This document shows positions 17,894-20,150 of a stretch of DNA of 64,000 bases, piece by piece. The notes under the pieces were generated by a model, which saw only the letters and a list, made by a program, of their open reading frames with translations, was not told the origin of the DNA and searched no databases. The position numbers and the translations under genes were made by a program. The stretch is from Brevibacterium sp. S22 (GTDB lineage Bacteria; Actinomycetota; Actinomycetes; Actinomycetales; Brevibacteriaceae): NCBI RefSeq assembly GCF_004745485.1, contig NZ_RHFG01000002.1:310001-374000 (forward strand), read 5' to 3'. How positions within the stretch are numbered: position 1 is the stretch's first letter; every line of letters begins with the position of its first letter.

Positions 17894-17961
17894 CTCAGGT
17901 AACGCGAAACTCGAAAAACGCGCCGCCGGCGACGCCTTTTTCGACGTTCGCGTTACCTGAG
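17894..17961. terminator. Long nested hairpin after the ACAD-like gene
   Basis: CTCAGGTAACGCGAA (17894-17908) pairs perfectly with TTCGCGTTACCTGAG (17947-17961). Inside it, TCGAAAAA (17911-17918) pairs with TTTTTCGA (17937-17944), leaving a GC-rich apex. It begins 52 bases after the ACAD-like stop and precedes the ABC-F promoter, so it probably insulates the two units. The symmetry also allows a DNA-binding role. Confidence 0.6.
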
Positions 17962-18009: not shown

Positions 18010-18015
18010 TAGAAT
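18010..18015 (+). promoter_or_regulatory. -10 element TAGAAT for the leader/ABC-F transcript
   Basis: TAGAAT ends 7 bases before the ATG of the leader peptide. Transcription would therefore start at about 18022-18023 and the leader would be translated without a 5' UTR. No good -35 is evident, as in many activator-dependent actinobacterial resistance promoters. Confidence 0.5.
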
Positions 18016-18022
18016 TGATGCC

Positions 18023-18067
18023 ATGAACTTCGGCATGCCCTCCAGAAGGCTCCGCAGCCGCCGCTGA
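18023..18067 (+). CDS. Leader peptide MNFGMPSRRLRSRR upstream of the ABC-F gene
   Basis: A 14-codon frame (ATG 18023, TGA 18065-18067) lies 99 bases upstream of the ABC-F start and right behind a -10 element. Five of the last seven residues are Arg. The stop codon sits inside a strong GCCGCCG/CGGCGGC hairpin, and two mutually exclusive hairpins follow. Ribosome stalling on such peptides, provoked by 50S-targeting antibiotics, induces many ABC-F and erm genes. The same mechanism is inferred here from layout; the peptide matches no leader I recognise. Confidence 0.6.
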   Translation: MNFGMPSRRLRSRR

Positions 18068-18142
18068 CGGCGGCGAGACCCTTCATTCCGATCTCGTGCG
18101 CCGTCCTGGCCCTCGCCGGACGGTGGCTTCATGCTGTCCGGC
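18057..18142 (+). promoter_or_regulatory. Attenuator with alternative hairpins upstream of ABC-F
   Basis: Hairpin 1: GCCGCCG (18057-18063) with CGGCGGC (18068-18074), loop CTGA, over the leader stop codon. Hairpin 2: CCGTCC (18101-18106) with GGACGG (18118-18123). Hairpin 3: GCCGGAC (18115-18121) with GTCCGGC (18136-18142). Hairpins 2 and 3 share 18118-18121 and cannot form together. That is the hallmark of a switch between terminated or sequestered and open states. There is no U-run, so termination may be Rho-dependent or the control translational. Confidence 0.6.
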
Positions 18143-18166
18143 TCCACGACGAGCTGAAAGACCACG

Positions 18167-20017
18167 ATGCCGAAGACCACATCTTCATTCCCCAACCACA
18201 ACCTGCCCGCAGACGATCGAGTGACTGCAGGCGGCCCAGCTGACCATCTGCTCGGCGACGAACAGGTGCCTGCCGGCTCGGCCGCGCACATCCGGGCCGA
18301 GGACATCCACGTCGTGCTCGGCGATCGCGAGGTTCTCACCGGTCTCGACGTGACGATCTCCCCCGGCTCTCGGCTGGCTGTCGTCGGTGAGAACGGCAGC
18401 GGAAAGACGACTCTGCTGCATGTCCTCGCCGGGTGCCTGCCGCCCGACCAGGGCTCATTGCGGCGAGCCGGTACCGTCACCCTGCTCGAACAGGCACTCG
18501 ATGCCGACGAGAACCGAACCGTCGGTGACCTCATCAACGCGTCTCTGCGCCAGGAACATGCCGCCCTGGCTGCGCTCGACGCCGCCGGTGAGGCGATGGC
18601 CCGGGAAGAACCCGGCGCCGATGAGTCGTACTCCGAGGCTCTCGGACTGGCGACCCGCCTCGACGCCTGGGACGGTGAGCGCCGCATCGAGACCGCATTG
18701 GCGGGACTCTCCGCCTGCACTGATCGGCAGCGGAGCCTGGCGAGCCTCTCGGTCGGGCAGCGCTATCGGGTGCGCTTGGCCGTCGTGCTCGGTTCGAGTA
18801 CGGATATTCTGCTGCTCGATGAGCCGACGAACCACCTGGACGCATCCTCGCTGGCGTTCCTCACCGAACGTCTGCGGGAGCGCAAAGGCGGATTCGCCCT
18901 GGTCAGCCACGATCGGGCGCTGCTGCATGACGTCGCCGGCGACTTCCTCGACCTCGACCCGAGCCGCGATGGCCGTCCCCGGAAGTACTCCGGCGGATAT
19001 TCCGGATGGGTCGAAGGGAAACGTCGAGATCGGGAGAGGTGGGAACAGGAATACCTCGCCGAGGTGGCCGAGCACTCCCGCTTGACCAAAGCCGCCGATG
19101 ACGCCCGATCCCGGCTGAAGACGGGATGGCGTCCGCCAAAGGGAACGGGCAAACATCAGCGTGCGACGAGGACGGCGGGAGTCGTGCAGGCCTTCAACCG
19201 ACGAGTCGAGGACCTCGAGCGCTACGCCGTTTCAGTGCCCGAACCGCCCTTGCGGCTGCAGTGGCCGGACGTCCCGAGCGCTGACGACGACAAGTTGGCT
19301 TCGAACGGCGACAAGCTGGCGTCGAACGACGACCAACCGGCTTCGGAGGATGGCCGACCCACGGCTGCAGCTCAGCCCTCTGCGTTCGGCGGCGGCCCGC
19401 TCCTGAGTGCGGATGCGGTCACCGTCGAAGGGCGGCTGAACGAGGCGGTGTCCCTGAGTATCGACCCCGGTCAACGTCTGCTCATCACCGGCGCGAACGG
19501 CACCGGCAAGTCGACGCTGCTCGACGTGCTCACCGGCCGGCTCGAACCCAGCGGCGGACAGGTGCGGCATCGCCCGCAGGCACGAGTCGAACTGCTCAGC
19601 CAGGAGGTCCCGGAATGGAAAGCCGATGACACGGCCGAACGTGTCTTCGAAGACCACTGTCTGCGAGCGGAACTCGACAGCGGACGGAAGTCTGTGCAGG
19701 CCGACGGTGACACACGAACGACGGCCTTCTGCGGAGATGTCACTCTGCAGGCTCTCGGTCTGCTCGGTGCGGATGCCGCGGCGACCCCGGTCCACCGACT
19801 GTCGCAGGGGCAGCAGCGGAGACTCCAACTGGCGATGTGCCTGGCGGTCGAGCCTGATGTGCTCATCCTCGACGAGCCGACGAACCATCTGTCCGCCTCG
19901 TTGGTCGACGAGCTCACGGAGGCCTTCGGAACCGCCTCGGCGGCGCTCATCGTCGTCACTCACGACCGGCAGATGTTGGCGGACCTGGCGGACTGGCCGC
20001 GTCTCACCCTCCGATGA
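18167..20017 (+). CDS. ABC-F ribosome-protection ATPase (antibiotic resistance type)
   Basis: A 616-residue cytoplasmic protein with two ABC ATPase domains and no membrane segments. Domain 1 has Walker A '[12 protein letters not shown]' (from residue 73), signature '[12 protein letters not shown]' and Walker B '[12 protein letters not shown]'. The interdomain linker (about residues 285-345) is highly charged ('[19 protein letters not shown]'). Domain 2 has '[13 protein letters not shown]', '[12 protein letters not shown]' and '[12 protein letters not shown]'. ABC-F factors dislodge macrolides, lincosamides or streptogramins from the ribosome, and the leader peptide upstream supports a resistance role over a housekeeping EttA-like one. 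A short degenerate repeat ('[21 protein letters not shown]') sits in the linker before domain 2. The drug range cannot be read from sequence. Confidence 0.88.
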
Positions 20018-20058
20018 GCTGCCGGTCGGTGACCGAGCACACTGAACCGCGGTGCTCT

Positions 20059-20122
20059 CGTTCAAGGCGGAGCGCACTTGTCGAAGGGCGTACCTCACGA
20101 CAAGTGCGCTGACGCTTGAACG
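20059..20122. terminator. Nested hairpin between convergent ABC-F and E2 genes
   Basis: The inner arms AGCGCACTTGTCG (20071-20083) and CGACAAGTGCGCT (20098-20110) pair over 13 bases. The outer arms CGTTCAAG (20059-20066) and CTTGAACG (20115-20122) pair over 8. It lies between the two stop codons (20017 and 20151), so a bidirectional terminator is likely. Confidence 0.65.
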
Positions 20123-20150
20123 ACGCCAAGGCGGCTCGTCCCGGCAGGCC

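What the first reader, a model, noticed from the sequence alone, without database searches (positions are those of the whole stretch)
18010..18167. Leaderless 14-codon leader peptide and switchable hairpins in front of an ABC-F gene
A TAGAAT -10 places the transcript start at the ATG of a 14-codon peptide rich in terminal Arg. Its stop codon is buried in a 7-bp hairpin. Two further hairpins (18101-18123 and 18115-18142) share bases and exclude each other. This is the layout of antibiotic-induced ribosome-stalling attenuation, but with a peptide sequence I do not recognise and no U-run, so the switch may be Rho-dependent or translational.
Basis: partly seen in the sequence, partly recalled or inferred. 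Interest (0 to 1): 0.72.

Follow-up and report, generated by a model that had tools for sequence, protein, structure and literature searches.

The report
Macrolide-sensing leader peptide before ABC-F gene
A tiny peptide gene in front of a resistance-type gene in an actinobacterium carries a known macrolide-stalling signal and an RNA switch shared by relatives, so it probably turns the gene on only when the drug is present.

Summary
The 14-codon ORF (MNFGMPSRRLRSRR*, 18023-18067) starts 7 nt after TAGAAT, in front of an ABC-F gene (18167-20017). Of 81 homologues read upstream, 39 carry the same kind of leaderless peptide: a basic residue six codons before the stop, then X, then Arg or Trp. This is the macrolide "+X+" arrest signal of ErmDL and MefAL. 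Another 25 carry a second leaderless type (MHLYFL*-like, resembling MsrDL MYLIFM); 17 have neither, 15 of them a distant subgroup. Leader type tracks the ABC-F tree. A ribosome stalled at the X codon would end just where that arm begins. Drug response, transcript start and output level (translation or transcription) are untested, and folding of the window's own copy shows no opening of the start region. A new, leaderless variant of a known kind.

The parts
18010..18015 (+). -10 hexamer TAGAAT, 7 nt before the leader ATG (leaderless start inferred)
   Evidence: Sequence; a TANNNT 6 or 7 nt before the start codon in 38 of 38 type-1 leaders tabulated
18023..18067 (+). Leader ORF MNFGMPSRRLRSRR*
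   Evidence: Translation; conserved family
18047..18055 (+). Codons R9-L10-R11, the +X+ macrolide arrest motif; L10 is the predicted P-site codon, five codons before the stop
   Evidence: R/K at -6 in 43 of 43 and R or W at -4 in 43 of 43 type-1 leaders; motif and P/A-site assignment from PMC8298421 (passages)
18057..18063 (+). Arm A of hairpin 1 (codons of S12/R13/R14)
18068..18074 (+). Arm B of hairpin 1, pairs with A; stop codon in the loop
   Evidence: UGACGGCG in 43 of 43
18066..18078 (+). Arm B extended, alternative partner of 18092-18105
   Evidence: 12 pairs, 204 of 204 cells paired, 3 pairs with two-sided changes, 0 of 500 shuffles as high
18092..18105 (+). Segment C with its 5' extension UCUCG, partner of B in the induced state
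   Evidence: own partners better than permuted partners except in 4 of 5000 permutations
18101..18123 (+). Hairpin C:D (18101-18106 with 18118-18123)
   Evidence: 100% of cells paired but no two-sided change
18115..18142 (+). Hairpin D:E (18115-18121 with 18136-18142)
   Evidence: 99.2% of cells paired, one pair with two-sided change in 2 rows
18093..18153 (+). Possible closing helix CUCGU:ACGAG (18093-18097 with 18149-18153) next to the ABC-F start region; weak evidence
   Evidence: 96.5% of cells paired, 29 of 500 shuffles as high
18167..20017 (+). ABC-F ATPase gene (616 aa)
   Evidence: two ABC_tran stretches

Best explanation
This is a drug-sensing attenuator of an ABC-F ribosome-protection-type gene. 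Transcription starts at the leader's ATG (inferred), so ribosomes load on a leaderless end. Without drug the ribosome runs to the stop and leaves; hairpin A:B re-forms, B is unavailable, segment C and its 5' extension stay free to take part in the blocking fold, and little ABC-F is made (inferred). With a macrolide or ketolide in the tunnel, the ribosome stalls with L10 in the P site and R11 in the A site (inferred from the same motif in ErmDL). Its front edge then covers arm A up to about 18065 and leaves B (from 18066) free. B pairs with 18092-18105, D pairs with E, and the ABC-F start is released. Release of translation is somewhat better supported in distant members than transcription read-through, but the output level is open. 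Shown here by sequence: conservation of peptide, spacing, leaderless layout and the B:C helix. Inferred: drug, stall, transcript start, direction of the switch.
For: A leader is present in 64 of 81 homologues read (39 type 1, 25 type 2). Type 1 has R/K at codon -6 and R/W at -4 in 43 of 43 leaders, these including 4 of 6 plasmid homologues. Arg at -6 uses three codons (AGG 22, CGG 5, CGC 4), so it is held at peptide level; Arg at -1 and -2 is always CGC (33 of 33 and 29 of 29) or is replaced by Ala, Val, Cys, Gly or Leu, so it is held at RNA level. The motif is that of ErmDL/MefAL (PMC8298421, PMC10314930, PMC4335068; passages). B:C co-varies. The start-region accessibility gain on stalling averages +0.065 over the terminated state, against about 0 in shuffles. 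Leader type follows the ABC-F tree. Plasmid homologues sit with MFS transporter genes (L149, L153, L154) or near erm(46) (L150).
Against: No expression, start-site or drug data. For the window's own copy the folding model shows no gain (free 0.41, stalled 0.39, terminated 0.38), and its ABC-F start has only a weak Shine-Dalgarno (GAAAG). SD-sequestering pairing is not clearly better than shuffled or permuted controls (mean z about 0; 473 of 5000). 8 of 38 type-1 leaders have Trp, not Arg, at -4, so a strict +X+ is not universal. One close relative (L014) has a frameshifted leader. No -35 was found. 29 of 57 genomes of the genus have no such homologue at the cut-off used.
Confidence: 0.72

Rival explanations
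1. Same sensor, but the output is transcription: C:D or D:E (or Rho acting on the unpaired RNA) stops RNA polymerase unless the stalled ribosome re-folds the leader.
For: ABC-F attenuators are mostly transcriptional (vgaA, msrD, vmlR, lmrC; PMC10314930 and PMC8546547, passages). Leaderless leucine leaders of Streptomyces without a typical terminator are reported (PMC8079986, passages). The window's start region shows no accessibility change.
Against: No U-run and no terminator-like site on this strand. In several distant members the start region opens on stalling (L052 0.17 to 0.41, L053 0.11 to 0.40, L083 0.24 to 0.41).
Confidence: 0.35
2. The leader senses arginine (or charged tRNA-Arg) shortage, like an amino-acid attenuator.
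For: Five Arg in the last seven codons. Actinobacterial amino-acid leaders are often leaderless.
Against: Terminal Arg is replaced by Ala-Ala, Gly-Arg, Val-Leu or Val-Ala in relatives, the -6 residue may be Lys and -4 Trp, and the gene is an ABC-F.
Confidence: 0.05
3. It senses peptidyl-transferase-centre drugs (lincosamide, pleuromutilin, streptogramin A), as in LmrC/Are5sc.
For: Actinobacterial ARE5 genes are induced this way (PMC12421871, passages).
Against: Those uORFs are stalled at the start codon and their sequences differ (MLV, MVGDDDISG). Here residues -6 and -4, at fixed distance from the stop, are what is conserved, and the closest named resistance set by NCBIfam score is TlrC/CarA/OleB/SrmB, although far below its cut-off.
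Confidence: 0.12
4. Chance ORF in a GC-rich spacer; the hairpins are unrelated structure.
For: Arg-rich short ORFs are common in GC-rich DNA (general knowledge).
Against: 37 of 81 against a mean of 0.14 in shuffles; an exact pattern found in 9 of 396 order genomes, every time at the ABC-F leader, reversed-pattern control 0.
Confidence: 0.01

Closest known systems
ErmDL / MefAL (Mef(E)L) / MsrAL / MsrCL leader peptides
   Same: Macrolide arrest motif S-M-R/K-L-R/K; leader followed by alternative hairpins; MefAL and MsrAL precede macrolide-resistance genes including ABC-F (PMC4335068 Table 3, PMC10314930, PMC8298421; passages read).
   Different: MefAL has its own AGGAGG site 34 bases into the transcript and a U-run terminator. 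Here the leader is leaderless, the arrest codon is five codons before a stop placed inside the switch hairpin, and Trp can replace the second Arg.
MsrDL (MYLIFM)
   Same: The second leader type found here (MHLYFL, VQYLFFL, VHLPLYL and others) is also a 6-8-residue hydrophobic peptide before an ABC-F.
   Different: Leaderless, in Actinomycetes, ends in Tyr/Phe-Leu; stalling untested; it is not the window's own type.
LmrC / Are5sc / TiaA attenuators of Streptomyces
   Same: uORF-controlled ABC-F genes in Actinomycetes.
   Different: Different uORFs (MLV, MVGDDDISG), respond to lincosamide, streptogramin A and pleuromutilin, different ABC-F subfamily (PMC12421871, PMC8546547; passages).
Leaderless amino-acid leader peptides (ilvB of C. 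diphtheriae; leuL, trpL, ilvL of S. lividans)
   Same: Leaderless leader ORF with competing hairpins, some without U-run (PMC5784534, PMC8079986; passages).
   Different: They sense amino-acid supply and control biosynthesis genes.

Membership tests
+X+ macrolide leader-peptide attenuators (ErmDL/MefAL class) | Short ORF upstream of a macrolide-resistance-type gene with R/K-X-R/K | tested here: met
   RLR in the window; R/K-X-R in 33 of 43 type-1 leaders and R/K-X-W in 10 of 43; that the gene gives macrolide resistance is not shown
+X+ macrolide leader-peptide attenuators (ErmDL/MefAL class) | Mutually exclusive RNA helices coupled to the stall position | tested here: met
   A:B against B:C; B:C 204 of 204 cells, two-sided changes; own partners beat permuted ones; X codon five codons before the stop in all type-1 leaders
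+X+ macrolide leader-peptide attenuators (ErmDL/MefAL class) | Drug-dependent stalling and induction | not testable with these tools
   Needs toeprinting and reporter assays
+X+ macrolide leader-peptide attenuators (ErmDL/MefAL class) | Leader translated from its own Shine-Dalgarno site (as in MefAL) | tested here: not met
   TANNNT 6-7 nt before the start codon in 38 of 38; no room for a Shine-Dalgarno if transcription starts there. Hence a variant, not a plain member
ARE4 / TlrC-CarA-OleB-SrmB ABC-F | NCBIfam NF000171 above curated cut-off 800 | tested here: not met
   289 bits for the window protein; 293-351 bits for the five relatives scanned
Ribosomal protection-like ABC-F (NF000355) | Score above cut-off 380 | tested here: not met
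   303 bits; two ABC domains; resistance not shown
MsrDL class | MYLIFM-like hydrophobic peptide | tested here: not met
   Window leader is type 1; 25 of 81 homologues have the MsrDL-like type
Rfam RNA families | Match at gathering score | tested here: not met
   0 matches in the whole window

The most novel reading that the evidence does not exclude
Two sister clades of actinobacterial ABC-F factors each carry their own leaderless drug sensor: one uses the ErmDL/MefAL arrest chemistry, the other an MsrDL-like one, the same two chemistries that the streptococcal mef/msrD operon combines. Sensor and protein would have co-diverged across the Actinomycetes, each sensor reporting the drugs its ABC-F removes. 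The repeated Arg-to-Trp change at the A-site codon (KLW, KPW, RPW) would retune the sensor, for instance to cladinose macrolides rather than ketolides. Leaderless loading would let the sensor work on drug-bound ribosomes without a Shine-Dalgarno site.
Probability: 0.35. Interest if true: 0.8.

Novelty: new variant of a known kind. Interest (0 to 1): 0.63.

Why it matters
The macrolide-sensing leader peptides in the papers I read come from Firmicutes, and MefAL uses a ribosome-binding site. A leaderless version conserved in front of chromosomal and plasmid ABC-F genes of Actinomycetes (including the erm(46) plasmid of Rhodococcus equi) would predict drug-inducible expression that ordinary annotation misses, give natural variants for studying drug-specific stalling, and link sensor chemistry to ABC-F clade.

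Tried and rejected
Rfam scan: nothing. Intrinsic terminator: no site on this strand. SD-sequestration by duplex energy: not clearly better than shuffled or permuted controls, so translational release is stated only as likelier in distant members. Arginine attenuation: rejected by codon data. Looser pattern search for the leader in 394 class genomes: 4 hits, one (L080) before an ABC-F, three judged chance. The early tables misread minus-strand loci, which are not turned; redone. Literature: ten searches over open-access PMC text found no report of these actinobacterial leaders in the listings; subscription papers and preprints were not searched, so it may be in print. No structure prediction was run.

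Definitions: the rule "+X+ with X five codons before the stop" was written after seeing the genus and order sets and then applied to the 23 class-level loci and 6 plasmid loci. Allowing Trp followed from the genus set. Widening type 2 from MHLYFL to other [FY]L* peptides was done after seeing the class set.

Full report
WHAT IS THERE. The window is G000:C25:310001-374000 of a 4.5-Mb genome, GC 66%. TAGAAT at 18010-18015 is followed after 7 nt by ATG 18023 and the ORF MNFGMPSRRLRSRR*. ABC-F starts at 18167. It has two ABC domains and scores best with the general ribosomal-protection ABC-F model (303 bits, cut-off 380) and the TlrC/CarA/OleB/SrmB set (289, cut-off 800), both below cut-off.

CONSERVATION OF THE PEPTIDE. 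P0001 finds a homologue at E <= 1e-60 in 28 of 57 genomes of the genus, at E <= 1e-70 in 47 of 297 genomes of the order and at E <= 1e-95 in 26 of 394 of the class. I read the upstream DNA of 81 loci: 28 in the genus (L009-L036), 30 more in the order (L048-L077) and 23 more in the class (L083-L105). Not every listed homologue was fetched: 30 places of the order list were taken. Type 1 leaders: 39 of 81. Examples are MNFGMPSRRLRSRR, MYLGIASMKLWDRR, MMGIASMKLWARR, MCSHLGIASMRLRSRR, MRHTGIASMRLRTRR, MYSGIASMRLRTGR, MVPGTALMRLRSAA, MARCCWPIWSQRLRSAR, MNFCMPSRRLRPVL, VLTASMRLRFRA, MFTGFVSMACTASMRLRLAA and MMYTGIASMRLRSCR. Two of the 39 need a word: L014 has a frameshift before the motif, and L034 (MQRTSSIWVRDRIRR) lies outside the 330-nt region of the automatic count (one search prints it). 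Type 2: 25 of 81, such as MHLYFL, VQYLFFL, VHLPLYL and MQYLYFL. Neither: 17 (15 of a more distant subgroup, L036 and L101). Six of the 19 plasmid records with a homologue were opened; 6 of 6 have a leaderless leader (MYRGIASMKLRSAR, MYASTGFMKPWSLR, MSFCMKPWFCR, MARGIWSQKVRSAR, VHLYFL, MHLYFL).

CHANCE. In 200 sets of dinucleotide shuffles of the 81 regions, type 1 appears 0.14 times per set (37 observed by the automatic rule) and type 2 not at all (25 observed). An exact DNA pattern R-[LIM]-R-x-CGCCGC-TGA-CGGCGG occurs in 9 of 396 order genomes, each time at the leader of the ABC-F gene, and its reversed control in none. A looser pattern in 394 class genomes gives 4 hits, of which one (L080) lies before an ABC-F of 54.6% identity.

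WHICH PART IS SIGNAL. In 43 type-1 leaders (the 39 above and 4 from plasmids) the residue at codon -6 is R or K (31 and 12), at -4 R or W (33 and 10), at -5 mostly L (33). At -8 and -7, Ser and Met are commonest (27 and 21), giving SM[RK]L[RW]. Arg at -6 uses AGG, CGG and CGC, whereas Arg at -1 and -2 is CGC every time (33 of 33, 29 of 29) and elsewhere similar G+C-rich letters read as Ala, Val, Cys, Gly or Leu. TGACGGCG follows in 43 of 43. So the motif at -6 to -4 is kept as peptide, and the terminal Arg-Arg as RNA. ErmDL stalls at R6-L7-R8 with L7 in the P site; Ser4 and Met5 matter for erythromycin and the +X+ itself for telithromycin (PMC8298421, passages). MefAL is MTASMRLR and MsrDL is MYLIFM (PMC10314930, passages; Table 3 of PMC4335068). 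The Trp variants therefore predict response to cladinose macrolides with weaker ketolide response (inference).

LEADERLESS. A TANNNT lies 6 or 7 nt before the start codon in 38 of 38 tabulated type-1 leaders (35 at 7, 3 at 6). No -35 passes the scan. The start site itself is not mapped. Leaderless amino-acid leaders are known in actinobacteria (PMC5784534, PMC8079986, passages).

THE SWITCH. Hairpin A:B (18057-18063 with 18068-18074) encloses the stop. The added helix B:C pairs 18066-18072 with 18099-18105 and 18074-18078 with 18092-18096. On 17 aligned rows of the genus it is paired in 204 of 204 cells, with two-sided changes at 3 pairs, above all 500 shuffles and all slid versions. D:E has one such pair, C:D none, A:B none, and CUCGU:ACGAG one (29 of 500 shuffles as high). 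Only the 17 genus rows of groups L009-L025 were in that alignment, out of 38 type-1 leaders. Over 37 distinct type-1 leaders B:C has 10-14 pairs and -18.0 to -24.4 kcal/mol (the search picks the best site per sequence, which favours pairing). Against shuffles the mean z is -1.7 and negative in 38 of 38. Among 14 group representatives the own partner is better than permuted partners except in 4 of 5000 permutations; for A:B the figure is 369, for the SD partner 473. With L10 in the P site and the usual footprint (front edge about 15-16 nt from the P codon's first base, recalled), the ribosome ends near 18065 and B begins at 18066. The X codon is five codons before the stop in every type-1 leader, so this geometry is constant.

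WHAT FOLDING DOES NOT SHOW. Mean unpaired probability of the start region (-14 to -5) over 38 type-1 leaders is 0.288 free, 0.370 with a ribosome at codon X, and 0.305 with a ribosome at the stop. Stalled exceeds terminated in 28 of 38 and free in 26 of 38; shuffled controls average about 0. For the window's own copy there is no gain (0.41, 0.39, 0.38). Whether the output is translational or transcriptional stays open.

TREE. 71 ABC-F proteins were prepared; 3 short in-frame readings were dropped (those belonging to L058, L099 and L104) and 68 went into the tree. Only 5 of the 15 distant homologues without a leader were fetched for it, of which 4 remained. Type 1 (39) is one side of a branch (SH-aLRT 96). 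Leader types need 3 changes, as low in 0 of 200 shuffles. Near-copies contribute to clustering.

NEIGHBOURS ELSEWHERE. On Micrococcus pLMV7, Janibacter and Glutamicibacter plasmids the ABC-F gene is followed at once by an MFS transporter gene, and on pRErm46 it lies two genes from erm(46). This recalls mef/msr and supports a macrolide role, by context only.

VERDICT. A real, conserved, leaderless leader-peptide attenuator; it works like ErmDL/MefAL systems (inferred); it is filed as a new variant because the leaderless start differs and drug response is untested.

Noticed in passing
17894-17961: A 68-bp inverted-repeat element (CAGGTAACGCGAA...TTCGCGTTACCTG) recurs at 76-91% identity in about a dozen other places of the genome, matching on both strands; a close relative (L010) has it at the same place, L011 does not.
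   Followed up: partly
L150 5674-5829 (pRErm46): erm(46) itself has a similar layout: TAGGGT, 6 nt, GTG, VGNTNIAVTEFRRF*, a CCGCCGC..GCGGCGG hairpin over the stop and a downstream CTGGGCGGC/GCTGCCCGG pair. It may be a related leaderless attenuator with a different peptide.
   Followed up: partly
L059, L065-L067, L070, L086, L088-L090, L092-L100, L102-L105, L031, L033, L035: Second leader type (MHLYFL-like) before sister ABC-F genes, with its own repeated downstream elements (GACGGCTGAG ... CGCCGTC in the MHLYFL group).
   Followed up: partly
20041-20130: A long imperfect inverted repeat follows the ABC-F stop (CGCACTTGTCG...CGACAAGTGCG with flanking GTTCAAG/CTTGAAC); possible terminator or mobile repeat.
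   Followed up: no
L036, upstream of its ABC-F (reverse complement): A more distant ABC-F of the same genus has a three-codon leaderless-looking uORF (MKS*) after TACACT.
   Followed up: no
L014: A natural frameshift in an otherwise conserved leader; intact copies exist in close relatives.
   Followed up: no
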